The notes beneath the pieces were generated by a model. That model had not been told where the DNA came from, searched no databases, and saw only the letters and a program-made list of their open reading frames with translations. Below are positions 38,381 to 58,552 of a stretch of 64,000 nucleotides of DNA, piece by piece. The stretch is from Porphyra umbilicalis (lineage: Eukaryota > Rhodophyta > Bangiophyceae > Bangiales > Bangiaceae). The number at the start of each line of letters is the position of its first letter. The first letter of the stretch is position 1. The stretch is from assembly GCA_002049455.2 (NCBI GenBank), contig KV918966.1, forward strand, positions 1 through 64,000. The letters are read 5' to 3'. Both the position numbers and the translations under genes were made by a program.

Positions 38381-40739
38381 GATGGGCTGCTCGGCGCGCT
38401 GCTGCATCACTGTGCCACTTCCCTCTTCGGCGCATCACCCCCCCACCACCGGCACAGGCCGCCCGCTCACGAGTCGTCAGAGTTTCGCTCTCGCCGTCGC
38501 GGCAGCGTGTGGCGCTACCGACGGCCGACGCGCCCGCCACCACCGCCGCACCCGCCGCCGCCACCCGGTGCGCCAAGGACGTGTGTTGCCGTCGGTTGTC
38601 GCCGCCGCCGCCGCCGCCTCCTCATCTATCGCCACCGCAGACGCGGCGGCAGCGGCGGCGATGCTGCCCTCGCCCGCTCGGCCCGCCACTGCTGCCGCCT
38701 CCCCCGCGCCGCCGGCCGTCCTTCACGGGCGCACGCGGCGGCTGGAAGGCGTACCCTTCGCCGCCCCTGCCGCTGACTGCGGCGGTGCGGCACGACCCGC
38801 CCTGGCGGCAGCCTGGTCGCTCTCCAAGCGCCGGGACCGTCGCCGCCTGACCGGCCGCCGCCCAACATTTGGCGCCGTGCCCCGCGCCTCCGCCGCCACC
38901 TTGCGGCGGTCGCGGCCGCTGCTACGGTGCCGGTGATGCTGGAGGCGACGGCGGTAGCACAGCCGCTGATGCAGCGCCACTCACGTTGCGGTGGGGGGGG
39001 AGGGATCGAGGGGGGGGGGATCGAGGGGGGGGTAAGCGGCACCGCCGCAACAGACGGCGACGCGGCGCCCGAGGGTGCGCGGCCGCAGCACTCCGCGCCA
39101 CCAGACGACACGCGCGGCGCTGCTCACGGTTTCCGCAGTCAAGGTGCGTGTGTTCGGCCCCCCCCCCTTCGTGTTGCGGCCGCGGTCGTCAAGAGACCCC
39201 CGGGGGGGACACGGTGTTCGCTGCAGCATCGGCGGCGGCGTCGCTGGCGGCACCCTTCGCCGCGCCGTCGTCTACCAGTGGCCATCCATCGACGGCCGCG
39301 GCGGCGGCAGCGCCCGCCCTTGACAGCCAGTAACCCGCGCCGTCGCCCCCGCGCCCGTGCCAACCGACGCGCCACCGTCAAGGTCAGATGGGCCGCTACC
39401 ACCATTTGTACGGGCGGGGTGCCGCCGTCCCATCTTCCCCTGCCCTCCCCCACAAGTGACCGCCTGGCGTGGCGCCGCGCGCCGCCCTGCCATTGGCGCC
39501 AGCCCCGCCGGCGGGCCAGCGCGGCGCGCTCATCGTCACCGCCAGCCACGGCGGCGGGAGTTGCCGACGGTGTCCAATTTGCTGCCGCCCAACCCAACCG
39601 GCAGCGGTCGCAACGGTGACCTCGAATGCCGGTGGCGCCGACGTGAGTGCCGAACACGCGTCCAACGCGAGTGGTCACACACCCCCGCGCGGCCGACACC
39701 ACTTGCCACAGCCCCGAGTGGCCGTCGCCAGTGTCCACACCCCGGCGCGGCGCGGCGGCACGGACAGAGGGCAACCTCATGGCTGCGCGCCGCGGCCGTG
39801 GTCGGCCGCGACGCCCTGCCCGGCGCACGCGAACCGCAGGCCACCGGACGCCGACCCATGCGTGGGGCGGCCGTCGCTGCCGCCATTCTACCGACAGTGA
39901 CCCTAGGTCCCCTTCGATAAGGGTTCCATCATCGTTGGTGGCCGCCGCCCTCGACACGCCAGCGCCATCGACGCACAGAGTCGCCGCCGGGCGCGGCCAT
40001 CGGGGCGATTCGCACCGCACCCGCCCACCACAGCCGTAGGGCGGGGGGGGGGGGGGAGGAGGGTGCCCCGCCGGCGGCGATGCAGACAACGCCTCCGTTG
40101 CCGGCGTGGGTGCGGGCGGCGGAGGCGCCACCCCAGGCGCCGCTGGGTTGTCGACGGCAGGCGGCGGCGATGGTGCGGGGGGAAGCGGGTGGGTGGCGTC
40201 GGCAGCGGCGGCCTGGGGGGGGGGGGGGCGGCCGTCCCGCCGCAGCGGGACTGGCGGACGTTCGGTGCCCGACTGTCCCGCCGGTCCCCTTCCACAGGGC
40301 TGCGGAGCGACGCGCCGCCGCCTCCACCGCTGACGCAAACTGCCGTACCAGTCGGAAACTAACCACAAACATGTAGGTGCACTGTAAATAAGGCGCACAG
40401 CGCAACGAACGGCCTTGGCGCGTCCCACCTCAATGAGTTGGTGTAAAAGGGAACGTAAAAAAGAAGTAAGCGGCAACAGTGCAACCATACCGAGCAGGAG
40501 AGCTACTGCGCTCAAAGCGCAGCGCATCCCCCCCGTCAGACTCGTCACGACCATCACCCCCCTAGCTCTGCCGCTGCCGTCGGCTGTATCTGCGCCGCCG
40601 GCCAAGAGGAGCGGCGGCGACGCTTCTTGTCCCATCGCCTGGGGCCGTCCCCCCCATCTGCGGCACTCTAACCCGCTTTCGGGCTCCCGCGCGCAGTCGT
40701 CCCGGCGCATCGAGCGCGCTGCTGTCAACCTGTCGCCAC
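38381..40739. other. GC-rich region, no gene I can support
   Basis: About 70% GC with G-runs (38990-39035 with GATCGAGGGGGGG in tandem; 40038-40060; 40207-40220). Long Arg/Pro/Ala frames are open on both strands at once, a composition effect. One plus frame (38364-38936) has an Ala/Ser/Arg-rich start that could pass for an organelle-targeting sequence, but nothing recognisable follows. The last five bases, GCCAC at 40735-40739, are the target duplication of the copia nest. Confidence 0.45.
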
Positions 40740-41224
40740 TGTGAATAATTCGGGAGGAGGGCGGACGCGCCCACGCTGCGGCGAGCGTGGAGGCGCCCAC
40801 TGCGTCCTCGCGGCACGCGCCAACACGCTCGTGGCACGCGTGTGCGTGTGCCGGCGCGGGGACGGTCGCGCCCGTTCCCGCGGGCCCGGACGGAAGCGTG
40901 TGCTTGGTGAGCGGACGTGGCGGCACGACGAGACGCTCCCGCCTGGCGGTTGGACGTGGCGGTACGAGGTGTCGCGCCCAAGTCGTCGCGGCCGCTCCGC
41001 GGAAAATGCAAGGCCGCGGTGGGTGCGAAGGCCGGCTGGGCTGCCGTGCTGACTCACGCGCTGCACGGCGACGGTGCCGCGCGAGTGCGTACGCGCGGCG
41101 GAGGAGGAGGGAGAGGCGTGACTTTGGATGGGGACAGGGAGGGCGCCTGAGGATACAAGTAACGGAGGGAAGGGAGACGGGGAGACCCGAGTGATAGCCA
41201 ACAAGAGAACGACCCTTTCTCACA
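40740..41224 (+). repeat. Copia 3 5' LTR
   Basis: 485 bp, TGTGAATAATTCGGG...TTTCTCACA, very GC-rich (about 68%). No clear TATA box seen. The left flank is GCCAC. Confidence 0.92.
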
Positions 41225-41243
41225 TGGTAGCACGACCTCGGGG
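41225..41243 (+). other. Copia 3 primer-binding site
   Basis: Directly after the LTR comes TGGTAGCACGACCTCGGGG. The first eight bases fit a tRNA 3' end UGCUACCA, the class that includes initiator tRNA-Met; the rest differs, so the tRNA is unsettled. Confidence 0.6.
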
Positions 41244-41447
41244 CGTCTCTTGTTCAGACCCCACCTCTCCCTGTGTCGCGCGGATCCTCCCGTCTGCCGC
41301 GCGCTGGAACGTGCCTGCGGGGCTGGCACGACAGCCGGCTCCGGCAGCCCGGTGCCCGGCGCCCCTTCGGGCGTCGGCACGTCGCGTCGCGTGAGCGACC
41401 GGCCGCTGCCAAGTCCGCTGCCCCCGCCGTCAGTCTCGCCGGGGACG

Positions 41448-41689
41448 ATGGTGCCCCCCGGCAGGGCGCCGCAGCCTACGGCGCAGCAGGAGGCCGACGC
41501 TGCCGCCGCGGCCGAGAGGGCCGTTGCTGCCACGGCCGAGGCCGCGTCGGCCGTAGCCGCTGCCGAGGCCACCGCCGCCGCGGCGGCGGCCCGCGCCCGG
41601 ACGGCCGCCGCCGAGGCCGTCGCTGCCGAGGCGGCGGCTGCGACGGCTAAGGTCGCCGCTGGCCAGAGCGCCGCCCCGCTCGCCGCTGG
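41448..41689 (+). pseudogene. Copia 3 gag, first part
   Basis: Starts at ATG 41448 (MVPPGRAPQPTAQQ) and continues as an Ala/Glu-rich probable coiled coil (about 20-70). It is cut at 41689 by copia 1. After removing copia 1 and one GCTGG the reading continues at 46654. Confidence 0.65.
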
Positions 41690-42107
41690 TGTTGAATCGC
41701 AGTGGGGATAGGGGTTGGGGGACCACGGTGAAGTGATTGAGTGGCTTGAGCTTGTGTGTGTGTGTGCGAACGTGCTTTGTTGGTTGTCCTAAGGTTCGCC
41801 CGCCTCTCCCAACCGAGAGCACCTCTCAAATAGTCCCCACCGGCCCAAGTGCTCCCCCCTCTCGCGCCCACACCGACGCCCACGCCCTCGCACCAAATCG
41901 AATCACTCACCAAATCAAAAGCCACTAGAGCAAAGCGAAGATCAAATCCAAAACATGCCAAAAGTAACGCCCCAAGATGACCCAACACAAATGTGTGCAA
42001 CTTGACCACGTCTTGCAAATGTACCATGTGGGGTACCGTAAGGGTCACCGACCATCATCCATCCGCGAACCGCCAGTGGAGTCGGCGACGAGCATCACAG
42101 TCCAACA
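41690..42107 (-). repeat. Copia 1 3' LTR
   Basis: 418 bp, on the minus strand TGTTGGACTGTG...TTCAACA. A (GT)n run is included. Next to it, 42108-42118 gives the minus-strand purine tract GCAAGGAGGAG, the likely polypurine tract. Confidence 0.92.
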
Positions 42108-42142
42108 CTCCTCCTTGCTTGTTGCCGCGGCGGTTCTTGTAT

Positions 42143-45100
42143 TCAGCAAAGCCCCATGGCCTCGACATGCTTGTCGTGCTTGGTCTTGCCGAGCTCCTTC
42201 GTCATCGGGTCCGCCACCATGTCGTCCGTTGCACAATGCTCCAGTGTCACCTTGTCCGTCGTGATGGCCTCGCGCACAAAGTGGTAGCGAATGTCGATGT
42301 GCTTAGTGCGCTTGTGCTCGACGGGGTTCTTGGAGAAGTCAATGCACCCGCTGTTGTCGACGTTGATGTTGATCGGCCCGCCCCAGATCGCTGTCCGCAG
42401 CCCTTGAGTTGCCACGCTTTGCACGAGCTTGTTGAGCCAAACAGCTTCCTTGCTGGCCTCACAGAGAGCCATGTACTCGGCTTCCATTGTCGACAGCGCC
42501 ACCGTCTTCTGCAACTTAGTACCCCAGCTGACGGCTGCTCCACCAAAGATGAAGGTGAAGCCCGTCGTAGAACGTCGCGTCTCGTGGTCACCCGCCCAGT
42601 CGGCATCACTAAAGCCTTGTAGAACACAGGAAGAGTTCTTGTCGAAGACCAGCCCCTTGTCCATCGAACCCTTGACGTACCGTAGAACGCGCTTGATCGC
42701 CGCCCAATGCTCCTTGCCGTAGCAAGAAACAAACCGACTCAGCTCTCCGATAGCGAGGGCGAGGTCAGGACGTGTCCCGACCATCAGGTACATCAGACTG
42801 CCGACGGCTTCGCGGTAGGGCAGCGCGTCGTCGCTCTCGTCGGCCTTGACCAGCTGCAGGCCCACCTCCAGCGGCGTTCCGATCGGGTTGCACTCCGCCA
42901 TCCCGAACTTCTCCAGCACTTGCGCCGCTTACTTTCCCTGCGACAGCTTGAGGGTGCCCAACGCCTTGTCACGCCTAATCTCTAGCCCGAGGATGACCTT
43001 CGCCTCGCCCGGGTCCTTCATCTCAAAACGCTTGTGCAGAGCGTCCTTAATCTTGTAGATCGCCGCCAGGCTTGATGCCACCAACAGGAGATCGTCGACG
43101 TACACCAGGACGATGTTGATTTCGCCGTCATCCATGAGGAGGTAGAGGCATGCATCCGGGTCAATGTTGTCAAACCCCTGCGACTTGAGGAAGTCGTCGA
43201 GCTTGGCGTACCACATCTTGGGAGCTTGCTTCAGCCCATACAGCGCTTGGAGGAGACGACACACTTTGTCAGGATACGTCGGATCGACATAGCCGTCTGG
43301 CTGCTCCATGTAGACCTCCTCGTCAAGGTCGCCGTTGAGGAATGCCGTCTTGACGTCCATCTGATGTAGCTCCCACCCGTTCGCCGCCGTCATCGCCAGG
43401 ATGCATCGAATGGTGGTGAACTTTGCCACCGGCGCGAACGTCTCGTTGAAGTCGAGCCCCTTGATCTGCCGGTTCCCCATGAAGCACAGGCGCGCCTTGT
43501 GACGCGTCGTGTTGTTCCCGTTCTTTTCGACCTCGTTCTTGACCTTGTAAACCCACTTGCCCTTCAGCACACGTCGAATGGCCGGGCGATCCGTCAAGCG
43601 CCAAGTCTTGTTCTTGCGGATGGCCTCCATCTCCTCGTCCATGTCAATTTGCCGCTTAGCCGATTCCTGCCCTTGAACAGCTTGCACGTACGTCGTGGGC
43701 GCCTCGTGAGCAACCAGGCTCACCGGGCGCCAGTACTCGACAGGGGGTCGCCGCGCTCTGCCGCTCCGACGCAGCGTGTCTTGAGAGCCGCCACAACCTT
43801 GATTGTCGTGCGCGGACTTGTCAGATCCATCGTCTTGCTTGTCATCCTTGTCGTCATTGTCAGCATCCACGTCTCTGCCGTCGCTTTCAGAGCGCAAACC
43901 CGTCTCGACTCCGACGTTTTCGTCTCCGGGAAGCTCCTCTGCAACTTCTGCCACCTCGCTTACGTTCGTCTCGGCGAACACGACGCTTCGTGCCTTGAAG
44001 ACCTTGCCGTCGTCGAGTATGACCTTGTACGCCTTGCTGCCGTCGGGATAGCCTAAGAAGACGCCCTTCGCCGCCTTGTCGCCAAACTTGCCGTCGATGT
44101 GACTCTTGTGCAGCACCACCCAGCATGTCGACCCAAACACCCGCATGTGGCTTACGTCGGGCTTATTTCCGGTCCACAGCTCAAAAGGCGTCTTGCCTCC
44201 GGGAAGCGCCCGGCTGGTGACGCGGTTCTTGATGTAGACCGCCGTCTTGATGGCATCCGCCCAAAAGTCTTGATCGACGTCCTTGTGTCGAATCATGGTG
44301 CGAGCCATCTCCACGAGAACTCGGTTGAGCCGCTCAGCAACCCCGTTCTGCTGCGGCGTGTCGGGTACCGTGGTCTGGTGCGTCGTGCCGTTCTCATCAT
44401 GAAGAGCCTTGAATGCATTCGACACATACTCGCCGCCATTATCGGAGCGTAGGATCTTGATCTTGGTTCCCGTGTGCAGCTGGGCTTTCGTCAGCCACTG
44501 CTTGTACTCCGAGAGCAGATCGCTCTTCTTCTGCAGGAAGACCACGTCTGTCCAGCGGGAGAAGTCGTCAGTGAAGGTGCCAAAGTAGAGCGCACCGCCA
44601 CGCGACGGCTCCGACATTGGCCCGCCCAGGTCCGAGTGCACGAGCTGCAGGCGCTTGCTGACTCGACCTCCTCCTGCACTAGGCATAGGCGTCATAGCTG
44701 CCTTCCCATACACGCACGGCTCGCAGACGTCCTTGACCGCCATGGAAGAGCACTTGAGTCCATTGATGTCCTTGTTCTTGATCATCCGCTTAACGCCAGC
44801 CACGTTGACGTGCCCAAGGCGCTCATGCCAAAGCTGAAGGGAGGCCACCGCAGCAATATCCAACAGTGGGGCCATGTCCAGGTGGTAGAGCCCACTCTTC
44901 CGCGTGCCGCACGCAGCGACCTTGTCGCTAATCTTGATTATCGTCTTACCGCCCTTGAATGACACTTCCGCACCACGTTCCTCCATCATGCCGACCGACA
45001 TGAGGTTGAAGCCCATGGTAGGAACATGGAGTACCTTCTCCAACTTAATCTTGCGCGTCTTGCCGTGAACGATGACATTGAGCACGACGGTTCCGACGCC

Positions 45101-46069
45101 CGCCGTGGCTACGGACCCCTTGTCACCCATGGTGACGCTGTGTCCCGTGGTCGTCTGGTAGTCGTCGAAGCACCCGCGCATCCAGCACATGTGTGCAGAC
45201 GCCGCAGAATCGACAAGCCACGACTTGGAGATGTCATCGGTGTCAGCCGCATTGCCCACCAGACAGATGGCGTCGTCGCTGTCGCTACCATCGTCAGCCG
45301 CAATCGCGGCCACCTTGTCCTGTCTCTGCTTCTTGGCCTTGAGCTCTGGGCAATCGTGAGAGATATGCCCAAACTTATGGCAGTAGTAGCACTCGATCTT
45401 GGAGAGGTCACCACGGCGGCCTTGACCTCGATAGTTGGCGCCGACGAGTGCCATGTCGCCAATGCGCTTCGTCGCCGGTGACTTGTCCGCCTGCCGCCGC
45501 TCCTCCTGAAGCAAGCGGCTCTTGACAAAGTCGAGGCTTAGCTCGTCCTCGCCCTTGGCGTCGAGAGCCACCAGCAGGTTCTCGTACTTGGACGTCAGCC
45601 CGTTCAGGACGCTCATGGCAACGTCCATCTCCGTCACCTCGCCGCCCATGGCCGTGAGATTCTCGCCGAGGTTGCGCACGCGGTTGATGTAGCCCAGCAT
45701 GCCCTCACCGACGGTCATTTCGACGGTGTAGAACTCGCGTCGCGCCTTCATCTTGTTCATCAAACTCTTGCGCTGGAAGACACCTTGCAGCGTTGACCAC
45801 ATTTCCGCCGTCGTCTTGCAGCCCGCCACGTGCTCGAGCTGCTCAGATCCAAGGGTGAGCCCGATGATGGCGCTCGCCTTCGTGTCTCGACGCTTCCACA
45901 CCGCCATCTCGCGGGCATCTGCGTCCGTCGGCTTGCCGTCTTCGTCAAGCATATCGTCCAGGTCGCGCAGCGCGAGGACCATTTTAATGCGCTGACGCCA
46001 CTCGTGGAAGTTCGTCTCCGTCAACTTGTCGATCTTGATGCCGCCCATGCCGGCAGCGCCTCCGTCCAT
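42143..46069 (-). pseudogene. Copia 1 gag-pol polyprotein with one in-frame stop
   Basis: From ATG 46069 (MDGGAAGMGGIKIDKL) 1,046 codons run to a TAA at 42929-42931; the same frame then continues to 42143, total about 1,308 codons. Domains in order: copia-type gag; zinc knuckle CYYCHKFGHISHDC; protease WLVDSAASAHM (Ala in place of the usual Gly in D-S-G); pre-integrase LWHERLGHVN; integrase with D in LVHSDLGGPM, D in LRSDNGGEYVS and E in GVAERLNRVLVE; RT with FNETFAPVAKFTT and YVDDLLLVAS; RNase H with STMEAEYMALCEASKE and KHIDIRYHFVRE. The stop falls between RT and RNase H. One nonsense mutation is the only visible defect, so inactivation seems recent; readthrough cannot be excluded. Confidence 0.92.
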
Positions 46070-46217
46070 GATGTCTTCTTGTCGTAGCGCCCGACCTTGC
46101 CGAGCCGTTCGCCTTGACCGTCACGTCCTTGAACCACCTTGACCTCGTCCTCATCGCACTTGCCACGACCGCCGCGACACCAGCTGGCACACCTTGCTCT
46201 TGTCACAGCCCCGGCTC

Positions 46218-46231
46218 TGGGCCCATAACCT
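46218..46231 (-). other. Copia 1 primer-binding site (internal tRNA-iMet type)
   Basis: The minus strand next to the 5' LTR reads GGTTATGGGCCCAG. This is complementary to the anticodon stem-loop of initiator tRNA-Met (CUGGGCCCAUAACC), the half-tRNA primer known from Drosophila copia, not to a tRNA 3' end. Confidence 0.8.
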
Positions 46232-46648
46232 GTTGAATCGCAGTGGGGATAGGGGTTGGGGGACCACGTTGAAGTGATTGAGTGGCTTGAGCTTGTGTGT
46301 GTGTGTGCGAACGTGCTTTGTTGGTTGTCCTAAGGTTCGCCCGCCTCTCCCAACCGAGAGCACCTCTCAAATAGTCCCCACCGGCCCAAGTGCTCCCCCC
46401 TCTCGCGCCCACACCGACGCCCACGCCCTCCCACTAAATCGAATCACTCACCAAATCAAAAGCCACTAGAGCAAAGCGAAGATCAAATCCAAAACATGCC
46501 AAAAGTAACGCCCCAAGATGACCCAACACAAATGTGTGCAACTTGACCACGTTTTGCAAATGTACCATGTGGGGTACCATAAGGGTCACCGATCATCATC
46601 CATCCGCGAACCGCCAGTGGAGTCGGCGACGAGCATCACAGTCCAACA
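46232..46648 (-). repeat. Copia 1 5' LTR
   Basis: 417 bp copy of the LTR, flanked on the right by GCTGG at 46649-46653. Confidence 0.92.
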
Positions 46649-46653
46649 GCTGG

Positions 46654-48109
46654 GACCGCGTCCAACATGCTGCTGCCCGGCGCCAAGCCGACGCACACGC
46701 GGGCGCCCGAGTGGTCCGGGTCCCGACGGCTTCTTGCTGTACGAGGAGGATGTCAAGGTGTGGCTGCACATGAAGACGCTGCCCGACGACAAGAAGGGCG
46801 GAGTGATGCGCCTGGCGCTCAGCGGTGTCGCGAAGGAGGCGGCGCGTAACGTCGGCATCGACCACCTCGTCCTCCCGACGGGGTACCAGACGCTCCTCGA
46901 GTGCCTCCGCCTCATCTTTGGCGGGAGCGAGTCGCAGCGCGGGCACGACGCGCATCGCACGCTCAAGGCCTTGTACCGGGGCTCGCGGCAGATGGAGGAG
47001 TACTTCGCCACCATCGGGCAGGCGCTCGTCCAGTGCCGCATCAACGGGTACTCGATGTCCTGCAAGACGGCCGCCGCCATCGTCCTCGACCAGGTGGGAC
47101 TGGATGCCAATCAACAAGCGTCCAAAAAAGCGGCCGCGGCGGTGCTCACCCTCAAGGGTAGCGACACACTCAACGACGTCCTGCTATGTCCGGACGTGGG
47201 TTGTCGCCGGCCATCTTCCCCTGCTGCTCGGTCGTGCGACAATGGCGTCCTTGGGGGTGGTGCTCGACGTTGCCGCCTGCCAAATGGAGGTGAAGGCGCT
47301 TGGGGTGGAGGTCCCCTTGTCCATGTCCGCCGCCGGCCACCTGACGATCAACGCGCTCGACAGCCACGCCGCGGCGGTCGTGCGGTCGGTCGCCAAGGAG
47401 GTGGCGGCCACGGCGATGCCCGCTCTGGTCGCATCCGCGACGCGATCGGTCGACGCGGGCGCGGCGGCCCCTCCGACGCGCAGCTCCAGCGCGGCGCCGC
47501 GCGTGCGCCTGCCGCCAGCCTTGCTGCCGCCTCGCGCCCGGGGCACGCGGCGCCCGTGCCGGCGTCGACGCGCCAGGGGACGGAGCCGGCCTCGCCACAC
47601 ACGCCGTCCCGGTCGACGGCCGTAGCCGACGTGGGGGGTCCCGGCCCTCGGGCGCCGGTGCCGGCCACCGTCGCGTCGTGTTCGGGTGCGGACGAGCGTG
47701 CCGCGTGCGTTTTAGGGGCGGGGTCGACGCACGACCCGCGCGTGCCGGCGCTCCGCGCCTTCGTCCTCGCCGCTGTCGTTACCAGCGACACGCCTGACCT
47801 GCACCGAAAGGCGTTCAAGCTGCACACCCAGTACGTGCATTGCTCGGCCGCCCGCCTCAATGAGCTGCTGCGGACGGCGGGTGCGTAGGACGCCAAGGTG
47901 TTCGAGGCGGTGACGGCGGCAGTCGACGGGTGTGACGCCTGCAAGCTGACGGCGTCCCGCCCGCCGCGTCCGCCGGTGGCCGTCCCCCGGGCCCTGCAAT
48001 TCAATGACACGGTGGCAGTTGACCTGGCTCAAGTGGCCCCCATAGGTGCCTTTCTTCACATGGTGGACTTGGGCACCCGGTTTTCCAAAGCCGTCGCGAT
48101 TGCCAATAA
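46654..48109 (+). pseudogene. Copia 3 gag (second part), protease remnant and integrase zinc finger
   Basis: Gag continues with LLYEEDVKVWLHMKTLPDDK and a helical capsid-like part to about 47160, after a frameshift near 46720. Then, in another frame, only the second half of a retropepsin fold is left (SLGVVLDVAACQMEVKALGV, ending SAAGHLTINAL); the D-S/T-G half is missing, which points to a deletion near 47190. From 47778 the integrase N-terminal finger is seen (HRKAFKLHTQYVHCSAARLN ... GCDACKLTASRP), with a TAG at 47886-47888 inside it. The first integrase Asp is in VAVDLAQVAPIG. At 48109 a MITE breaks the frame. Confidence 0.75.
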
Positions 48110-48699
48110 TGCCCAGTCTACACGGCGAGCGACGTGAACGTGATTCGGCGCCAATATGAACATAAGTCCGCCAAAAAACACGTGATGTGGCGCCGTCTTT
48201 CTTTACGGCACGCACGAACACACTGTGCCAGAAGTTTATGGTCAGATCTGGCAGGGGGCGGGACGCGTGTGTCCCCGCCCCTGCCCCCTCTGGCTGACGC
48301 GTGTGACACCGACGCAGCGAGGGCTCATACGTGGCTGCACCAAGCAGGCGTCTCTCGAGAACTGACGGGTCTCCCATCTCTTGATCCGAGTGGTGCAGTC
48401 GTGAGGAGCCTTCTCGTCCAATCATTTCTGCGAAAGCCAAAAGACGCAAACGGCATATTGCTTTCCAAACACGTTCACGTGCGCGAGATATAAAAAAAAA
48501 TCTCGCGCACGTGAACGTGTTCGGCTTGAATGCGCCGAATGAGCCTGTTTCGGCTCGTAAGTCCTTTGTGTGCGGGATCGCATGGTCGGCCGGATTGGGT
48601 CTAAAAGTATTAGTGTGATTGGGGTGTGATTGGAACGAAGCGCTCCCATTGGCTAGCACGTGTCTGAGCACGCCGTGCACGCGCCGTGTAGACTGGGCC
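48110..48699. mobile_element. 590-bp MITE in the copia 3 integrase, TAA target duplication
   Basis: Ends (T/G)GCCCAGTCTACACGGCG in inverted orientation at 48110 and 48699, flanked by TAA (48107-48109 and 48700-48702). A TAA duplication fits PIF/Harbinger mobilisation. Removing the insert plus one TAA restores the integrase frame exactly. The interior has a perfect hairpin: AACACGTTCACGTGCGCGAG(A) at 48468-48488 pairs with 48501-48521 across a 12-nt A-rich loop. No coding capacity. Confidence 0.88.
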
Positions 48700-48702
48700 T
48701 AA

Positions 48703-51123
48703 GGAGGCGATGACCGTAGCTCGTGCCTTGCTCGCGGGCTGGTTTGTGCACCACGGCGCTCTCCGCGCCCTTCTCGCGGACCCTGGTGCCGAGTTCAACA
48801 ACGCTGTCTGGCGCATCGTGGCCGAGCGTCACAACGTTGCGGTCCTCTCCACGGCGGTGCAGGCGCACTGGTCAAACGGTGTCGTGGAGCGGCACAACCA
48901 GACCCTTAAGACGATGGTGACAACGACGGCGCTTGACCACATCCATGTCGACGCGCAGGAGCTCCTTGACCTCACCTGCCATGCCAAGAACAGCATGGGG
49001 AAGCACAACGGCGCCAGGCCCTACCAGTTGATGTGCGGTTCGACGCCCCGCGTGCCAACGGCGCTGATCGACTCGCTGCCGGCTTTGAGCGCCCGTCGGG
49101 TGCCGGGTGACGGGGCGCTTCACGCCCACCTCGACCTGCTTCACGCCGCTCGGTCTGCCCACACGCAGGCCGAGGCTGCCTCTTCCCTGCGTCGTGCGTA
49201 TGCCCACAATGCCGCCAATGTTCCTGTCAACACGTTCATGGTCTGCGACGCCGTCTACTTCTGGACGGACGGGGTGGGGGTGGGACGCGGCGGGTGGCAA
49301 GGTCCAGCGCACGTCACGGACGTGGCCGTAGCCAAGGATGAGGTCCGCCTCCAGTATGGGCACCTCTGGGTCAACCGGGCCTCGAGCCAAGTCCGGCCTG
49401 TCGGCGCGGGGGCTGGCTCGACGCCTGCCACACCGCCGGTGCACGATGGCGCGCCGTCGTCCGACGTGCCGCTGCCGTCGTAGGGCGTGCCGGATGCAGA
49501 GGATGCGGCGGCGGACGCTCCGGTGGAGGAGGTCGCGGCGGAGGACGCGGGCAGTGAGTCGGACGCCTGCTCCTCCTCGAGTCTCGCGGACAGGACGGCG
49601 TCCATGATGACGGGCGTCCAATCGGCTCTGGACCGCCTCGCTGCCGAGTCCGTGTCAGCGGGCCGTGCACGCTCGCCCTCCGCCCCTGTGTGGGCCGGAC
49701 GTACTCGGGGCGGGTCGCGGCCTGTCCACTTTGCCTCGGCGGATGACCCCGCGCCGGGCGGCGGTGCCGCCGTGACCATTGAGCCGCTTGTTACTTCCCC
49801 CAAGCACGCGGAGGAGGACTTTGCCCTGAAGCGGTTTGGGTTCCAGCAGCGTGCCATCAATCGCCGCGCTCCGACCGCAGAGGTGAACGCGGTCCGCCAA
49901 CGCAATGTGGAGGACGCCCTCATGGCCGTCATCCCTGGCCCTGACACTCTGGCGTCGGCGCTGCGGCGTACGGGCGTTACCACGCACGAGGCGTTTGTGA
50001 CGCGGCGCGAAATGCGGCGGCGTGCGGAAGTCCCCATTGCGGAGGCGGGAGCCGCGTTTGACGCCGCCATCATGGATGAGCTTGCGGCGTGGGCTGACCT
50101 GGCTGTCTATACCGAGGTGCCCTACGACGGCCGGGTGGTCTTGTCTACCCGGTGGGTGCTGACGGTCAAGGAGCCCGACGCGCCCACCAGCCCACCGCGT
50201 CGCAAGGCCCGGCTGGTGGTCCGGGGCTTTCAGGACCCAGAGCGTGACAACGTGGACAGCACGTCCACGACGGTGTCCCGCGCGACGTTTCGCGTCGCGC
50301 TCTCCGCCATGGTGACTCACGGGTTCATTCCCAGGACGTTGGACGTGCGCACTGCCTTCCTCCAGGGGACGCCCCTTGACCGCCCGACGCCGGTCTACAT
50401 CCGGCCGCCTCCGCAGGCGCGGGTGCCATCCGGCATGGTCTGGCGGCTGCGCAAGTGCGCGTACGGTCTTACGGACGCTCCGCGACGCTGGTACGACAGC
50501 ATGCTCCGGCTGATGGTCGCCCTTGAGCTGCGTCACTCGTCCCTCGACCACGGCCTGTTCACGTCCCACGCCCAAGGTCATCTTGTCCTGGTGGTCGCCG
50601 TCCACGTTGACGACTTTCTCTTTGGTGGTACGGCTCCGGCGGTGGAACGCTTTGAGGCGGCGCTGCGTCGCTCGTTTGTTACCGGGCCGACCAATTCGGG
50701 GGACTGCACGTTCACGGGCGTGCCGGTGCGCACCGCGGTGGACGACGATACGGGCGACCTGACTGTGCGGGCGGACCAGGAGCAGCATGTCGACAGCACC
50801 GACTGCATTGACATTCGCCCCGCGCGCAAGTCGACCCCCGACGCCCGCCTGCTCCCTGCCGAGCTGACGGCCTACCGGCGGGCTACTGGCGCCCTGCTGT
50901 GGGCCACTGGGCAAACTATGCCGTACTTGGCGTGTGCGGCCACGACCTTGGCGCGTCGCTTCGGTAGCGCCGACGTCTGTGAACTTAAGATTGCCAACTG
51001 GGTGGTTGCTGCTCCCAAGGCCGCTCGCGCGCTTCCGCTCGTCCTCCCGGCGATGTGGGGGCGCCAACGCGTGCGCCTCTTTGTGGACGCCTCCAGTGTA
51101 AAGACCGGGATCCCAACGGCGCA
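48703..51123 (+). pseudogene. Copia 3 integrase core, reverse transcriptase and RNase H start
   Basis: Integrase continues with the second Asp (ALLADPGAEFNN) and Glu (NGVVERHNQTLK). The frame meets a TAG at 49481-49483 in the linker and goes on in the same frame. RT (about 50090-50790) shows LDVRTAFLQGTP, RLRKCAYGLTDAPRRWY and the catalytic VHVDDFLFGG. The RNase H start is visible in VRLFVDASSVKTG, the first acid of the fold. At 51123 copia 2 is inserted; the rest is at 57094-57559. The integrase and RT catalytic residues are intact, so the defects are stops and insertions only. Confidence 0.88.
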
Positions 51124-51496
51124 TGTGAAGTCGGTGTGGTCAAGTGGGTGCGTTGTTTTACTATGGCAGAGGTCCTGGGCCGTGTCCAGCCACCTAATGT
51201 ACCCCAGGCGGCCCCAGGACAGGTCGTCGGGCAGCCCGCGCTCGGAGCACACCCACGTGCCTCAGTTCTCAGTGCGCGCGGGCCGCGGCGCACCTCCCAG
51301 AACGGGGCATGCACCTCCCCACACAAGTCCCCCCCCCCGAGCTCACCCCAGCAGAGAGTGCCCACTACGAGACCAACAAATCAAGTACACACGAGTACAA
51401 AACATACAACAAGTGCATAGGTAAATACCCAAGACTGAGTCCCAATGCTCAACCGGGTAAGTACAGACAAATGGAGTTGCTGAGCCATGCTCAACA
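51124..51496 (-). repeat. Copia 2 3' LTR
   Basis: 373 bp, minus-strand TGTTGAGCATGG...GACTTCACA. The internal side at 51497-51506 gives the minus-strand purine tract TTGGGGGGAG, the likely polypurine tract. Confidence 0.94.
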
Positions 51497-51596
51497 CTCC
51501 CCCCAATTACATTGTGACGGTTCCGGAGTCCGGATGCAAGGTAGCCCGGCTTCCGGCTTACAGCTTGATTTGGCTTCCCGATCGCCGCTGCTCGGG

Positions 51597-52276
51597 CCCG
51601 GGCTGTAGCAGTACAGCCCTCCTCGGGAAGCCATATCAGTTTTGGGCTGTACTGATACAGAACCCCCCCTCCCCGACTTGGCCGCAAAACGCGATGTGGG
51701 CCAAAAAACCGCTCACCGCCAAGTCGACAACCGCCGACTCGGACAGCATCAGAGCACCCGCCAGCCGACCGCCAGGCCGCCGCAAGCCGCCCAACCGCCG
51801 CAAAGTCGACGCAAACCGCCGACTTGGTAGAGACGCATGAAGCTGAGCTGTATCAGTACAGCCCTCCCCCCGCCACTTAAAACAAAACAAAACGATGTCC
51901 GCCAAGTCCGCCTCGGTCGACGCGGACAGCATCGGAGAAGCCCTTAGCCGACCGCCCGACCGCCGCAGGCCACCCAGTCGGCGTAAAGGCGACGCAAGCC
52001 GCTGCCTTCGTAGCGATGCAAGGGCCTGGAGCTGTATCAGTACAGCCGTAACGGCTACCGCCCAGCCGAAAATCGAATTGACGCGGTCGTCCAATGTTGA
52101 TCGGATCGTCCGACGAAACGTTCGGTAGACATCGATTCGACCGGCCGCCCCCGACTCGTTCGGCGAAACGTCGACTTGATCGACGAATTTCGGCACGAAT
52201 CCGACTCGGGCTGTATCAGTACAGCCCGCCGACAATCGGATCCCGATTCCGAGGAGGGCTGTACTGATACAGCCCA
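51597..52276. repeat. Copia 2 3' untranslated region with six GGCTGTA-TCAG-TACAGCC palindromes
   Basis: Palindromic motifs (stem GGCTGTA/TACAGCC, 4-nt loop) lie at 51601-51618, 51645-51660, 51846-51863, 52030-52047, 52209-52226 and 52257-52274; two are in the opposite loop orientation. Between them an approximately 185-bp unit (CCGCCAAGTCSRC ... GACGCAAGCCGC type) is repeated in tandem with divergence. The array lies between the polyprotein stop and the 3' LTR, so it is in the element RNA. Confidence 0.8.
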
Positions 52277-52374
52277 GCCCCCGACTTCGCCGTAAACCGC
52301 CCAATCGACCCGCAGCCGTTCGGGGCCGCCGACACCGCCACTCCGCCGCCAACCGCCGCCCCCCCCGAGGGGGC

Positions 52375-55300
52375 TCAGCACTGCGGCGCAGGACGTAGGG
52401 CCCGCGTGCCGCTACTCCCCGAAGTGCCCAGATCCGAGCCAACGCCGAGGACGCCCCGGAATGTGGTGAACGCCGGGGCCGGCAGTGGCTTCGTCATGCC
52501 ATCTGCGGGCATGTCGGCGCTGGGAAGAAAGTAGAAGGCAACCTCCCCACGCGCGACGTAGTCGCGCACCATGTGGTACGCAACGTCTACGTGCTTGGTA
52601 CGCCCGGTGGCTTCGGGATTGTTGACCAAAGCGAGGCACGCCTGGTTGTCCTCCCCCATGGGCACGGCGTCCCCGTCGACGCCCAGCTCCGACAGAAGTT
52701 TGCGCAGCCACAGCGCCTCCTTGGTCGCCATAGCGGCGGCGACGTACTCGGCCTCGGCCGTTGACGTCGCCACGGTCGACTGGCGCTTGCTCGTCCACGA
52801 TATCGGCCCGCCATTGAGGGTGAAGACAAAGCCCGTCGTCGACCGACGAGCGTCAATATCGCCTGCCCAGTCTGCGTCAACGTACCCTTGAAGAGGCTTG
52901 TCGTCGCCGTACACGACCCCTAGTCGCGTAGCCCCGCGAAGATATCGGAGCACCCCCTTGGCCGCGCGCATGTGGTCCTCCTCGGGGCATGACATGTAGC
53001 GGAAGAGCACGCCCACTGAAAAGGCAATGTCCGGCCTCGTCGTCGTGGAGAGGTACAGCAACGAGCCAACAAGCTCGGCGTACCGGTTGCCCTCGGGCAG
53101 TAGATTCTCCCCCGTCTTGCAAAGCTTGGCACCTGACACCATGGGCGTCTTGTTAGGCGCAGACTTGTCCATCTGGAAAGCCTCAAGCAGGGAACTGACA
53201 TGCCCCGGATTGCTCAGGGTGATCACCTTGGCAGCCCGATCTCGCATGACCTTCATGCCAATGAAGTCCTTGACCTCACCCATGTCGCGCACGTCGAAAG
53301 ACGCCGACACCGAGGCCTTGACCATCTGGACCCCTTCGAGGCTTTTTCCAGCCACAATGAGATCGTCCACGTAGACGAGGATGTAGACAAGCCCGTGCAC
53401 AGGGTGGCTCCACGTGTAGAGGCACGGGTCCACCTTGGACCGGACCGCTCCGATGGCATTGAGCTCTTTGTTAAGCTTGATGCCCCACAATCGTCCCGCC
53501 TGTTTGGTCTCATAGAGAGCCAGGTTCAGACGGCGGACATCACCTTCCTCCCCCGGCTCGGCTCCGACCGGAAGCTTGATGTACATCTCCTTGTCCATCT
53601 TTGCGTTGAGGAAGGCCGTCTTCACATCCACGTGGTGAACGTCCCAGTCCTTGGCCGCCGCCACCGCGAAGAGCGCGCGTGTCGTGGCCGAGCTCGGCAC
53701 TGGTGCCCATGTCTCATCAAAGTCGCGCCCCGGCACTTGGTTGAAGCCCTGCGCCACCAGTCGCGCCTTGTACCGAGTCATCTTGCCCTCAGCATCGTGC
53801 TTGATGTCGTACACGTACCGCGTTTTGACAGCCTTACGCTTGTTGCTGCTCCTGGTATTGGACCAGGTACCAAGCTTCTTGTGTGCGAGGTACTCTTCTT
53901 TCTCAGCCGCCTTCCAACGCGGCCAGTCCGATCGCGCACGCGCCTCCTTCGCATTGGCTGGCGCCTTGGTCAGGTCCCATCCCGACGGATCTCCGCCCTT
54001 GGGTCCTTCTGCAGCGTATGCCTTTGGGTTACGCTCCCACCAGGTAACCTTGGGTGCCGGCTTGCGCTTCGACCGCCGGAGTGCTTGCACCCCGTCGTCA
54101 CCACTCTCTGTGGTGGATCCAGACAGCACGTCGTGTCCATCATGATCCGCCGCGTCCTCGCCGGCGTCATTGTCATCTCCGTCTTCTGCGTCGAGTCCGG
54201 AAGCCTCGTCCGGCTCAACGTCGCTCTCTGACGATTGCTGCGAGGCATACTCGTCCCCGCTTGCGGCTTCCGCTTCCAGCATGTCCATGGCGCCGTCCTC
54301 CTTGTCACCATCCGTCTGACTGGTCAGGAAAGGGGTGGAAGCAGGGCCAGGGACAGAGGTCATCTTGATGGCCTTGCTTGAGGTCTCCTCCATGAGCACA
54401 TCTCGGCGCTCAAAGACCTTGTTTGAGCCATCCTCTAGGATGCGGTAGGCCTTGCCACCAACAGTGTAGCCGACAAAACGGCCGACGTCGGTCCTGGGTT
54501 CCAGCTTTCGCTGCTGCTGCTTGGGCTTCAGAGCCCATGCCCGGCTCCCCCAGACCCGAAATCCCTTCACGTCGGGGCGTTTCCCCGTGAGGGCTTCCAG
54601 CGGGGTCACATCTTGACCCGCCTTGGGGGATCGGTTGAGCACGTGGATGACGGATGACAAAGCCTCCGCCCACAGCTCCTCTTCCGCTCCGGCGTCCAGA
54701 AGAGCCGCACGGACGCGCTCCATGATGTACCGGTTGGCGCGCTCTGCCTTCCCGTTCTGCTGCGAAGAGTACGGCGCCGTCTTCTCAGACGTAATGCCTT
54801 TGTCTTCATACCAGGCTTGGAGGTCGCGGCTCACGTACTCCTTGGCGCCATCGTGACGAACCCGCTTCACCTTAAGCCCAGTTAGGGTCTCTAGCTGCTT
54901 GATGCGGGCCTTGAGGACATCCGGAACCATGCCCTTGGACTTGATGGGCGTCGCCGTGATGAACCCAGTAGAGTCTTCCATCAGAGTCACGAAGTAGACA
55001 GAGCCGCCCAGCGACGCCGTCAACGGCCCATGAACGTCCGTGTGAACCAACTCGCACTTGGTGGTGGTCGTTGTCGAGCGATGATGCGGAGAACGCGCCA
55101 TCTTTCCGTCGACACAAGGCACGCATACCGTACCAGGAACGCGCTTGGCGTCGGCTACCGTCGATGGAATCCCATCGACCATCCCAACCACACGCTTGAG
55201 GTTCTCGAAACCCAAGTGGTTGAACCGGCGGTGCCACAGCTCTGCCTCGCCGTCCATGTGCGTGGAGGCGGCTCTGGCCGACGCCGTGACCGGAGTCACC

Positions 55301-56559
55301 TTGAGCACGTAGTTCTCCGACTCGTTGACCGAGCCGACGACAGACGCGTTGCTCAAAACTCCGCTCGCGAGCACCGCTTCCCCATCACTGAGGATATAGC
55401 AGGCGTCGCCAACGAACACCACGGCACCGCCACAGCGGTCGACCGCTCGGACCGACAGAAGGTTGTCTGTCAGATCCGGCACAAGCATGGCCTCATCGAG
55501 GACCATGCGAGCCGTGGTGATTCCCTTCCCCACGTCCATGGACGCGTATCCGTGCTTCTTGATGGGCACCTTTTGGCCGTCAGCTAGAGTGACCTTGGCC
55601 CCGCTCCCCGTCGTCTTGACGGTGAAACCCGCGTCCTGGGCGGCCATATGGTTGGTCGCACCCGAGTCCAACACCCAGGTCGAGGACCCGCTGGTGCTCC
55701 CTGAAGCGTTGAGCTTCCCGGCCTGGCCTGCCGACGCAGCGTAGGCCAATGCGGCGCGGGGAGGTGCACCACCTCCACCGCCACCCTCACGACGCCCGCC
55801 ATTTGGCTTCTTGTTGCCCTTGGCGTCGTCGGCCTTCTTCTTGAGACAGTCGCGCTTCATGTGCCCCTTCTTGTCGCAGTAGTAGCACACGACCGCGCGC
55901 TTGTCCCACGGCTTCTTAGAAGCCGTTGCCGCAAACGCTTGCGACTTGACGCCGGTCGCCGAGGACGACCGCCCATGGCTCCCCCGCTGCTCCACAGTGA
56001 GCAGCTTGGCGCTCACGTCAGCGAGGTTGCGCTTCCCGTCCATGTTCTCCAGAACGGTCTTGATCATGTCATACTCGGCCGGAAGGCCCGACAGGATCTG
56101 CAGGACAAGCGTGTTCTCGTCCACCCGATTTCCTAGCATGGAGAGCTCTTGACGGATGCCCTTGGCGCGCGACGTGTACTTGATGATGTTCTCGTCGCTG
56201 CTCTTCTTGAGGTTGCTTAGCTCATGCATGAGCTGCAGCAGGCGTGCGTTGTCCCGCGCCTCAAAGATGTCCTTGAGCGCATCCCACGCCTCCTTGGCCG
56301 TACTGACCGCCGTCACCGAATAAAGATGAACCGGCTTGACCGACATCTGGATAGTCCCCAGGGCCGACTCGTTCATGAGGTCCCACGCCTCAGCTGCAAC
56401 GTCGCTCTTGGCACCGCTCCCAGACGCGGGGCGGTCCGTCACAACCGCAGCCCAAACCTTCTCCTTGATCATCTGTGCACGGCAGTACACAGCCCAGACC
56501 TTGTAGTCGTCGTCCAGCTGCGCGAAGCGAGGGCCAGCGTAGCGGCCGTACTCCGACAT
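52375..56559 (-). CDS. Copia 2 gag-pol polyprotein, intact
   Basis: 1,394 aa from ATG 56559 (MSEYGRYAGPRFAQLDDDYK); the frame is open back into the LTR but that part is non-coding LTR/PBS. Domains in order: copia-type gag; zinc knuckle CYYCDKKGHMKRDC; protease WVLDSGATNHM; pre-integrase LWHRRFNHLGF; integrase with D in LVHTDVHGPL, D in VRHDGAKEYVS and E in GKAERANRYIME; RT with FDETWAPVPSSAT and catalytic VYVDDLIVAG (about 53370); RNase H with STAEAEYVAAAMATKE and FYFLPSADMPADGMTKPL. It encodes particle protein, processing, copying and integration in one chain. No stop or frameshift. Of the elements here it is the best candidate for current activity. Confidence 0.96.
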   Translation of the reverse strand: MSEYGRYAGPRFAQLDDDYKVWAVYCRAQMIKEKVWAAVVTDRPASGSGAKSDVAAEAWDLMNESALGTIQMSVKPVHLYSVTAVSTAKEAWDALKDIFEARDNARLLQLMHELSNLKKSSDENIIKYTSRAKGIRQELSMLGNRVDENTLVLQILSGLPAEYDMIKTVLENMDGKRNLADVSAKLLTVEQRGSHGRSSSATGVKSQAFAATASKKPWDKRAVVCYYCDKKGHMKRDCLKKKADDAKGNKKPNGGRREGGGGGGAPPRAALAYAASAGQAGKLNASGSTSGSSTWVLDSGATNHMAAQDAGFTVKTTGSGAKVTLADGQKVPIKKHGYASMDVGKGITTARMVLDEAMLVPDLTDNLLSVRAVDRCGGAVVFVGDACYILSDGEAVLASGVLSNASVVGSVNESENYVLKVTPVTASARAASTHMDGEAELWHRRFNHLGFENLKRVVGMVDGIPSTVADAKRVPGTVCVPCVDGKMARSPHHRSTTTTTKCELVHTDVHGPLTASLGGSVYFVTLMEDSTGFITATPIKSKGMVPDVLKARIKQLETLTGLKVKRVRHDGAKEYVSRDLQAWYEDKGITSEKTAPYSSQQNGKAERANRYIMERVRAALLDAGAEEELWAEALSSVIHVLNRSPKAGQDVTPLEALTGKRPDVKGFRVWGSRAWALKPKQQQRKLEPRTDVGRFVGYTVGGKAYRILEDGSNKVFERRDVLMEETSSKAIKMTSVPGPASTPFLTSQTDGDKEDGAMDMLEAEAASGDEYASQQSSESDVEPDEASGLDAEDGDDNDAGEDAADHDGHDVLSGSTTESGDDGVQALRRSKRKPAPKVTWWERNPKAYAAEGPKGGDPSGWDLTKAPANAKEARARSDWPRWKAAEKEEYLAHKKLGTWSNTRSSNKRKAVKTRYVYDIKHDAEGKMTRYKARLVAQGFNQVPGRDFDETWAPVPSSATTRALFAVAAAKDWDVHHVDVKTAFLNAKMDKEMYIKLPVGAEPGEEGDVRRLNLALYETKQAGRLWGIKLNKELNAIGAVRSKVDPCLYTWSHPVHGLVYILVYVDDLIVAGKSLEGVQMVKASVSASFDVRDMGEVKDFIGMKVMRDRAAKVITLSNPGHVSSLLEAFQMDKSAPNKTPMVSGAKLCKTGENLLPEGNRYAELVGSLLYLSTTTRPDIAFSVGVLFRYMSCPEEDHMRAAKGVLRYLRGATRLGVVYGDDKPLQGYVDADWAGDIDARRSTTGFVFTLNGGPISWTSKRQSTVATSTAEAEYVAAAMATKEALWLRKLLSELGVDGDAVPMGEDNQACLALVNNPEATGRTKHVDVAYHMVRDYVARGEVAFYFLPSADMPADGMTKPLPAPAFTTFRGVLGVGSDLGTSGSSGTRALRPAPQC

Positions 56560-56701
56560 GACGATGACAACCACGCCAGCAGGCGCGGCACTGACGACGT
56601 GGGAGGCTATGCCCACCTGCCCGACGCCGGAACACACGGCAACCCAACCAAGGTCGTCCCGCCAACAACGGCACGGAAGACGACGATGACCACCAGCGAC
56701 A

Positions 56702-56715
56702 CTGGGCCCATAACC
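56702..56715 (-). other. Copia 2 primer-binding site (internal tRNA-iMet type)
   Basis: GGTTATGGGCCCAG on the minus strand, directly next to the 5' LTR. It is the same 14 bases as in copia 1, complementary to the anticodon arm of initiator tRNA-Met. Confidence 0.82.
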
Positions 56716-57088
56716 TGTGAAGTCGGTGTGGTCAAGTGGGTGCGTTGTTTTACTATGGCAGAGGTCCTGGGCCGTGTCCAGCCACCTAATGTACCCCAGG
56801 CGGCCCCAGGACAGGTCGTCGGGCAGCCCGCGCTCGGAGCACACCCACGTGCCTCAGTTCTCAGTGCGCGCGGGCCGCGGCGCACCTCCCAGAACGGGGC
56901 ATGCACCTCCCCACACAAGTCCCCCCCCCCGAGCTCACCCCAGCAGAGAGTGCCCACTACGAGACCAACAAATCAAGTACACACGAGTACAAAACATACA
57001 ACAAGTGCATAGGTAAATACCCAAGACTGAGTCCCAATGCTCAACCGGGTAAGTACAGACAAATGGAATTGCTGAGCCATGCTCAACA
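56716..57088 (-). repeat. Copia 2 5' LTR
   Basis: 373 bp; differs from the 3' LTR only at the base that reads GGAATTGC here and GGAGTTGC there. Confidence 0.94.
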
Positions 57089-57093
57089 GCGCA

Positions 57094-57559
57094 CACTGGC
57101 TTTGCGGTCTTTTCGACGTCGGCGGCGGTTCCCCCGGGGCCCATGTCCCCCGACGCGGCGCTGACGCTGCTGCTGTACACCTCGCACCGCCAACGCCGCG
57201 TCACGCACTCGTCGTTTGCTGCGGAGGTGTATGCCCTGCTGAAGGGTGTCCGCGCGGTTCTGGAGCTGGCCGTCATTCACGCGCACATCCACGCAGGGGA
57301 CGAGTACTGCCCGCCGCCGATTGACGCCTACACCGACAACTTGTCATTGTAAAACACCCTCGACGCCGACGGGGTGGTGCAGCCCAAGGAAGTTGGCGCC
57401 GCTGTCCAGGAGCTCCGCGAGTCTTATCACGGAGGGGCCCTCGCAACGGTAACTTGGCTGCGTGCCCGCGGGCAGCTGGCCGACGCCCTGACCAAAGCCG
57501 GGCGCTGTGAAGTGAGCGGTAGTTGGATGGATGCGTTGCTTTACAGGAGAGCGGTCTGA
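57094..57559 (+). pseudogene. Copia 3 RNase H, last part
   Basis: The frame resumes from 51123 after removing copia 2 and one GCGCA. RNase H marks: THSSFAAEVYAL (catalytic Glu), IDAYTDNLSL (catalytic Asp) and the family ending TWLRARGQLADALTKAG. A TAA at 57350-57352 interrupts it right after DNLSL. The polyprotein ends with TGA at 57557-57559. Confidence 0.85.
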
Positions 57560-58062
57560 GGCGCGAGGCCAGCAGGCTCTTAAACCCTCCGTGTGCCTCT
57601 CTCGCCACGTTCTGCCGGCGCACTCTCCGCCAGCGCAGTGCTCCTTCTCTTGGAGGGTACATGCTCTCACCACCCCACAAATCGCGACGCCCCTCGATGA
57701 CCCCACGAGAATCTCCCCGAGCTCAGCTCCAAAAGGAGCTGCCCTCATGACTCAAATACAAGTAATTACATCACACACATACAGCAATGCATGACAATGG
57801 CACAGCCAAACAAGCCGATGACCGCATAAATACGCTCGGAATTAGCCAGGCAGTCCGCGGTAACTCCGACTTACCTGCGCGGGCTTGGGGGGCTGCCTCA
57901 ACAGGCGCGACACGCCCCTGCAGCACACCATCCGGACGGGCATGTTCGGGGTGCGCCTCGCTGCCGCGGACCTCCTCACCAAGTCGTCCGCGGCCGCCTC
58001 CGTCTCGTCGACCGGCCAAGTGAGTATTGTCCCCGCTGCTGAGAAGGGCGGTAACGGGCGAA
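57560..58062 (+). other. Copia 3 3' untranslated region
   Basis: About 500 bp between the polyprotein stop and the 3' LTR. The last bases (GAGAAGGGCGGTAACGGGCGAA) are the weakly purine-rich candidate polypurine tract. No gene. Confidence 0.55.
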
Positions 58063-58547
58063 TGTCAATAATTTGGGAGGAGGGCGGACGCGCCCACGCT
58101 GCGGCGAGCGTGGAGGCGCCCGCTGCGTCCTCGCGGCACGCGCCAACACGCCCGTGGCACGCGTGTGCGTGTGCCGGCGCGGCGACAGTCGCGCCCGTTC
58201 CCGCGGGCCCGGACGGAAGCGTGTGCTTGGTGCGCGGACGTGGCGGCACGACGAGACGCTCCCGCCTGGCGGTTGGACGTGGCGGTACGAGGTGTCGCGC
58301 CCAAGTCGTCGCGGCCGCTCCGCGGAAAATGCAAGGCCGCGGTGGGTGCGAAGGCCGGCTGGGCTGCCGTGCTGACTCACGCGCTGCACGGCGACGGTGC
58401 CGCGCGAGTGCGTACGCGCGGCGGAGGAGGAGGGAGAGGCGTGCCTTTGGATGGGGACAGGGAGGGCGCCTGAGGATACAAGTAACGGAGGGAAGGGGGA
58501 CGGGGAGACCCGAGTGATAGCCAACAAGAGAACGACCGTTTCTTACA
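58063..58547 (+). repeat. Copia 3 3' LTR
   Basis: 485 bp, TGTCAATAATTTGGG...TTTCTTACA, followed by the target duplication GCCAC at 58548-58552. Confidence 0.92.
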
Positions 58548-58552
58548 GCCAC

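What the first reader, a model, noticed from the sequence alone, without database searches (positions are those of the whole stretch)
40740..58547. Four-layer transposon nest with a readable time order
Copia 3 (TSD GCCAC) holds copia 1 (TSD GCTGG), a TAA-flanked MITE and copia 2 (TSD GCGCA). For the MITE and copia 2, removing the insert with one duplication restores the host reading frame exactly. LTR differences counted by eye (11/485, 7/418, 1/373) rank the insertions in the order the nesting demands. Such a complete internally dated stack is uncommon in one short window.
Basis: partly seen in the sequence, partly recalled or inferred. Interest (0 to 1): 0.75.

Follow-up and report, generated by a model that had tools for sequence, protein, structure and literature searches.

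The report
Jumping genes nested inside jumping genes
In what is most likely a red alga's genome, one retrotransposon was later hit by three other mobile elements side by side and itself sits in an older repeat; it is a tidy but ordinary record of successive insertions.

Summary
Copia 3 (40740-58547, TSD GCCAC) holds copia 1 (GCTGG), a 590-bp MITE (TAA) and copia 2 (GCGCA). LTR differences are 11/485, 6/418 (not 7) and 1/373. "Four-layer" is wrong: the three inserts sit side by side in one host. Real depth is three, because copia 3 lies in an older dispersed repeat whose uninterrupted site was read in 3 of 3 fetched copies. Nesting demands only that copia 3 be oldest. LTR counts agree, but only copia 3 v copia 2 is resolved (Fisher p 0.016; copia 3 v copia 1 p 0.46), and copia 3 would rank oldest of three by chance one time in three. 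All six copia 1 differences are private against 19 sampled LTRs: the clock looks sound but coarse. The host is most likely a red alga. Nested copies occur elsewhere in it. Side results: copia 3 is a mosaic of two lineages; copia 1 and 2 carry primer sites matching the initiator-tRNA anticodon arm. Ordinary.

The parts
39740..40739 (.). Left flank of copia 3: part of an older dispersed repeat (its left edge was not found)
   Evidence: 51 matches listed in the own genome, 40 of 95 candidates scored; 8 places besides the window match up to the insertion point; 3 of those 8 fetched, all uninterrupted
58548..60362 (.). Right flank of copia 3: continuation of the same dispersed repeat
   Evidence: C236 matches to query position 1810, i.e. 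window 60362, at 94%; C103, C167 to 1461 at 95%; alignments
40735..40739 (.). TSD GCCAC of copia 3, left copy; right copy 58548-58552
   Evidence: single copy in C103 and C167, GTCAC in C236
40740..41224 (+). Copia 3, 5' LTR (485 bp)
58063..58547 (+). Copia 3, 3' LTR (485 bp, 11 differences)
41225..41233 (+). Copia 3 primer-binding site, 9 nt complementary to the 3' end of initiator tRNA-Met (CCA end recalled)
   Evidence: sequence; tRNA genes
41690..46648 (-). Copia 1: LTRs 41690-42107 and 46231-46648 (418 bp, 6 differences), gag-pol on the minus strand with one in-frame stop at 42929-42931; TSD GCTGG 41685-41689 and 46649-46653
46217..46230 (-). Copia 1 primer-binding site, 14 nt matching the initiator-tRNA anticodon arm
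48110..48699 (.). MITE (590 bp), TSD TAA 48107-48109 and 48700-48702
48900..48900 (.). Identity step in copia 3 against its relatives (mosaic breakpoint)
51124..57088 (-). Copia 2: LTRs 51124-51496 and 56716-57088 (373 bp, 1 difference), 1489-residue open frame 52375-56844 on the minus strand; TSD GCGCA 51119-51123 and 57089-57093
56702..56715 (-). Copia 2 primer-binding site, 14 nt matching the initiator-tRNA anticodon arm

Best explanation
An old dispersed repeat was hit by copia 3. Copia 3 was then hit independently at three places by copia 1, a MITE of most likely PIF/Harbinger type, and copia 2. Each insertion used a staggered cut and left a target duplication: 5 bp for the copia elements, 3 bp (TNA in the family) for the MITE. 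Copia 1 and 2 lie antisense to their host and are only distantly related to it. Shown here: LTR pairs, TSDs, natural uninterrupted sites for all four insertions, private LTR differences in copia 1 and 2. Inferred: integrase and transposase action, and the order of the three inner insertions (LTR counts favour copia 1 before copia 2 without proving it; the MITE is undated).
For: TSDs and LTR pairs. Uninterrupted sites: copia 1 site in L005 and L006, MITE site in L070-L072, copia 2 site in L008; copia 3 site in L093-L095. Frames agree across the MITE and copia 2. Six of 6 copia 1 LTR differences and the 1 copia 2 difference are private against 19 and 18 other sampled LTR places. Copia 3 has most differences, as nesting requires (11/485 v 1/373, p 0.016). 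High-copy families. RT pieces 26-29% identical at protein level between host and inserts.
Against: Copia 3 v copia 1 not resolved (p 0.46) and copia 1 v copia 2 not resolved (p 0.13); posterior that copia 3 is oldest only 0.82. The frame across copia 1 is off by one. The LTR samples are the best matches to one LTR of each pair, include both LTRs of several elements, and so are biased and not independent. A long relative of the MITE carries a DDE_1 gene and not the Harbinger-type DDE_Tnp_4. No read-level check of the assembly was possible.
Confidence: 0.94

Rival explanations
1. A true four-storey nest, each element inside the next, as the title says.
For: None found.
Against: Spans 41690-46648, 48110-48699 and 51124-57088 do not overlap, and each is flanked on both sides by sequence that aligns to relatives of copia 3.
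Confidence: 0.01
2. Assembly artefact: repeats misjoined so that they look nested.
For: The families are high-copy and 96-99% alike over stretches of kilobases, which favours misjoins in general.
Against: Exact TSDs at all four insertions and relatives that read straight through each site would not arise from random joins.
Confidence: 0.03
3. LTR differences of copia 1 were inherited from, or converted by, other copies, so that the dates are meaningless.
For: Gene conversion is a stated caveat of LTR dating (PMC6911290, passage). Copia 1's 5'-coordinate LTR is closer to other copies (2 differences, L010, L011) than to its own partner (6).
Against: At all six sites the 19 other sampled LTR places share one state, so each difference is a single-copy change.
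Confidence: 0.08

Closest known systems
Nested LTR retrotransposons of plant genomes (PMC6911290; abstract start, passages)
   Same: Younger LTR elements inside older ones, dated by LTR divergence, with TSDs; the paper analyses 1491 nested pairs in 12 plant genomes.
   Different: A red alga (most likely). That paper finds nested elements mostly in the 3'UTR of the host element and coding regions not commonly hit; here the MITE and copia 2 lie in pol-coding sequence and copia 1 in the gag-side frame.
Copia elements of red algae: PyRE10G of Porphyra yezoensis and GalEa-like CoPorcru1/2 of Porphyridium (PMC3587641 and PMC2806351, passages)
   Same: Same superfamily, and red-algal hosts.
   Different: Not compared by sequence here; the clade of copia 1, 2 and 3 is unknown. 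The GalEa-like crustacean elements in that paper use a tRNA-Met 3'-end primer site, unlike copia 1 and 2.
Drosophila copia and yeast Ty5, primed at the tRNA anticodon arm (PMC10886601, passages)
   Same: Copia 1 and 2 have 14 nt next to the LTR that match the initiator-tRNA anticodon arm.
   Different: Only the sequence match was seen here; use of the primer was not tested.
PIF/Harbinger MITEs
   Same: Inverted repeats, 3-bp TSD, a longer relative with the same left end that carries DDE_Tnp_4.
   Different: TSD is TNA in this family, wider than the TWA I recall as typical; another long relative carries DDE_1.

Membership tests
Ty1/copia (copia 1, copia 2) | Integrase upstream of reverse transcriptase in one gag-pol frame | tested here: met
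   Copia 1: rve 473-572 before RVT_2 820-1041; copia 2: rve 601-694 (29.3 bits, below the 32.6 cut-off) before RVT_2 993-1236
Ty1/copia (copia 3) | Integrase upstream of reverse transcriptase | tested here: inconclusive
   RVT_2 86.9 bits in 49487-51424; no Pfam hit in the pieces 48710-49483 and 46518-47888
LTR retrotransposon (all three) | Paired LTRs with TG...CA ends and a 5-bp TSD | tested here: met
   3 of 3
Anticodon-arm (half-tRNA) priming (copia 1, copia 2) | Primer site complementary to the tRNA anticodon arm and not to the 3' end | tested here: met
   14-nt match to initiator-like tRNA genes of this genome
Anticodon-arm (half-tRNA) priming (copia 1, copia 2) | Reverse transcription really starts from a tRNA cut in the anticodon arm | not testable with these tools
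   needs small-RNA or cDNA data
PIF/Harbinger (MITE) | Terminal inverted repeats and a 3-bp TSD | tested here: met
   17/17 inverted repeat; identical TNA triplets in 15 of 19 copies with both ends located, of 20 examined
PIF/Harbinger (MITE) | Autonomous partner with a DDE_Tnp_4 transposase and the same ends | tested here: inconclusive
   C25 relative carries DDE_Tnp_4 (4.3e-19) but its right end is altered; the C17 relative L069 with intact ends carries DDE_1 (8.3e-17)

The most novel reading that the evidence does not exclude
In this red alga two abundant copia families may be primed by the 5' half of initiator tRNA-Met. Four of the five initiator-like tRNA genes seen carry a 12-nt insert in the D-loop, inside that very half, so primer supply would depend on removal of an ectopic intron, and retrotransposition would be tied to unusual tRNA splicing.
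Probability: 0.15. Interest if true: 0.5.

Novelty: new member of a known kind. Interest (0 to 1): 0.2.

Why it matters
It is a clean worked example of relative dating by nesting, with natural uninterrupted sites for all four insertions, in a lineage (most likely red algae) about whose transposons the papers seen here say little. It does not change how nested transposons are understood. It also shows how weak LTR counts are at this age: three LTR pairs resolve only one of the three pairwise orders.

Tried and rejected
Considered and rejected: a four-storey nest (the spans do not overlap); misassembly (exact TSDs and uninterrupted relatives; no read data were available); copia 1 LTR differences inherited from another copy (all private in the sample). 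My first MITE span, 48109-48703, was off and was corrected; searches used spans based on it, so the MITE numbers are not used and the letters are. In one search the minus-strand loci were not turned, which gave false difference counts; one search repeats the test with them turned. A window-wide tRNA scan found none. A pattern search for the copia 3 primer tRNA gave no enrichment over its reversed control (12 v 21 matches at up to one mismatch). Three paper searches for a TNA duplication with pogo, with DDE and MITE, and with Harbinger returned 0 papers each; nothing is claimed about print beyond those searches. The left edge of the outer repeat was not found.

Full report
Setting. The window lies on contig C206 of an 83.8-Mb, 665-contig genome. 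Contig C665 carries 10 of the 11 matches to the phycobilisome family. One product matches R- and B-phycoerythrin alpha chains, one PDB entry being named rhodophytan, although the top hit bears the label 'bacterial fluorescent protein alpha'; another matches phycocyanin alpha chains. Together with the genome size and LTR elements this points to a red alga; that is an inference, and the species was not identified.

Anatomy. Three LTR pairs were measured base by base. Copia 3: 40740-41224 / 58063-58547, 11 of 485 differ, TSD GCCAC. Copia 2: 51124-51496 / 56716-57088, 1 of 373 differs, TSD GCGCA. The MITE is 48110-48699 with TAA on both sides. Copia 1 and 2 code on the minus strand, copia 3 on the plus strand. 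Copia 2 has a 1489-residue open frame; copia 1 has one in-frame stop at 42929-42931 between two open stretches of one frame. In the frame that fits, copia 3 has no stop before copia 1, one between copia 1 and the MITE (47886), one between the MITE and copia 2 (49481), and its first stop after copia 2 at 57350.

Layer count. The three inserts do not overlap and each is flanked by copia 3 sequence, so this part is one host with three sibling inserts. Copia 3 itself interrupts an older dispersed repeat. Its left kilobase has 51 listed matches (40 of 95 candidates scored); besides the window, 8 places match right up to the insertion point. Three of those 8 were fetched, and 3 of 3 run straight through the site with one GCCAC (C103, C167) or GTCAC (C236), 92-95% identical over the 200 bases on either side (178 on the left in C167). 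Real depth is three. The right edge of the outer repeat lies near 60362; whether it is a transposon was not shown.

Natural uninterrupted sites. Relatives of copia 3, about 6.3 kb long judging by LTR positions, lie on C535, C47 and C23. The flanks of each site were aligned to them separately. At the copia 1 site the two flanks overlap by exactly the 5-bp duplication in L005; in L006 the site differs at two bases and the overlap is less exact. At the copia 2 site they overlap by 5 bases in L008. At the MITE site all three of L070-L072 read through a single TAA. The left flanks of C535 and C47 outside the element are unrelated, so these are separate insertions.

Reading frame. Insert length plus one duplication, taken with the open frame on each side, agrees for the MITE (593 bases) and copia 2 (5970 bases). 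For copia 1 (4964 bases) it is off by one; L005 has one base fewer than the window within 150 bases right of that site.

Dating. Fisher tests: copia 3 v copia 1 p 0.46, copia 3 v copia 2 p 0.016, copia 1 v copia 2 p 0.13. With simple gamma posteriors copia 3 is oldest with probability 0.82, and the full order 3>1>2 has probability 0.78. Nesting demands only that copia 3 be oldest, which random counts would satisfy one time in three. For the clock: at all six copia 1 difference sites the 19 other sampled LTR places carry one state, that of the 5'-coordinate LTR at five sites and of its partner at one; the single copia 2 difference is private against 18 of 18. These samples are the loci cut for the best matches to one LTR (20 of 41 and 20 of 40 listed matches, the window's own left out); they include both LTRs of several elements, so they are biased and not independent. 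Against the clock: copia 1's 5'-coordinate LTR differs less from other copies (2, L010 and L011) than from its partner (6), as expected if the partner took most changes but also open to other readings.

How common. First-look candidates were 721 for the copia 1 LTR, 167 for the copia 2 LTR and 168 for the MITE, 40 of each scored. Of 37 sampled LTR places outside the window, L042 shows a copia 2-family LTR directly against copia 1 interior and L032 one within 16 bases of a 75%-identical copia 2-like interior; L017, L022 and L046 show close or tandem copies. At most 1.5 kb of flank was seen for each, so 2 of 37 is a lower bound. PMC6911290 calls nesting common in LTR retrotransposons (abstract start).

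MITE family. Of 20 loci examined (the window's included), 19 had both ends located, and 15 of 19 have identical TNA triplets on both sides; four do not (L053, L054, L056, L062), and L061 and L063 share flanks and may be one insertion. A long relative on C25 carries a DDE_Tnp_4 domain (4.3e-19), which points to PIF/Harbinger, but its right end is altered. Another long relative, L069, with both ends and TTA on both sides, carries a DDE_1 gene (8.3e-17). This conflict is unresolved.

Mosaic host. In 100-base windows against C535, copia 3 is 91-98% identical over most of 41540-48899 (one window of 83% with a gap), 82-91% in the leader, and 46-82% across the LTR. From 48995 it is 73-87%, with three poorer windows (63, 56 and 65%, at 49395, 49495 and 49795). 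C535, C47 and C23 all show the step at 48900 (for C535 6/200 v 18/95 mismatches, p 9e-6; the breakpoint was picked by eye, so p is generous). Reverse transcriptase is usually the more conserved part (recalled), so recombination between lineages is likelier than differing constraint. No closer source of the right part turned up (best 80%).

Primers. Copia 1 and 2 have, next to the LTR, 14 nt matching the initiator-tRNA anticodon arm; copia 3 has 9 nt matching that tRNA's 3' end with CCA (CCA addition recalled). Anticodon-arm priming is reported for Drosophila copia and Ty5 (PMC10886601, passages).

Verdict. It is an ordinary nested retrotransposon locus.

Noticed in passing
L084, L085, L088, L089 (own genome, outside the window): Four of five initiator-like tRNA-Met genes found by an exact pattern (7 places, 2 of them copia-like) carry a 12-nt insert in the D-loop with four different sequences; ARAGORN of 4 as they stand and 4 of 4 with the 12 nt taken out; L087 lacks the insert and is called. 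D-loop introns are reported in the red alga C. merolae (PMC3978253, passages).
   Followed up: partly
window 60436-60979: A second MITE with long inverted repeats, TAA at 60433-60435 and 60980-60982, tens of close copies. Match coordinates on C219 and C603 suggest an uninterrupted site in another repeat that begins near 60369.
   Followed up: partly
window 31021-34510: A Ty3/gypsy-type element on the minus strand (RVT_1, RNase H, integrase in that order) next to a fragment resembling the copia 1 LTR, 91% from 34061, followed by copia 1-like interior letters.
   Followed up: no
window 1318-2805 and 61574-63985: A Harbinger-type transposase frame (Plant_tran 1.8e-59, DDE_Tnp_4) and a frame with a DDE_3 domain (7.3e-9): the window is rich in transposons.
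   Followed up: no
L069 1-5371 and L090-L092: Two long relatives of the MITE with the same left end carry different transposase types, DDE_1 and DDE_Tnp_4. One may be a later insertion.
   Followed up: partly
window 8944-10094: Two interleaved inverted repeats of 234 and 252 nt, 94% and 92% complementary.
   Followed up: no
window 40740-58547, step at 48900: Copia 3 looks like a recombinant of two copia lineages; the source of the right part was not found.
   Followed up: partly
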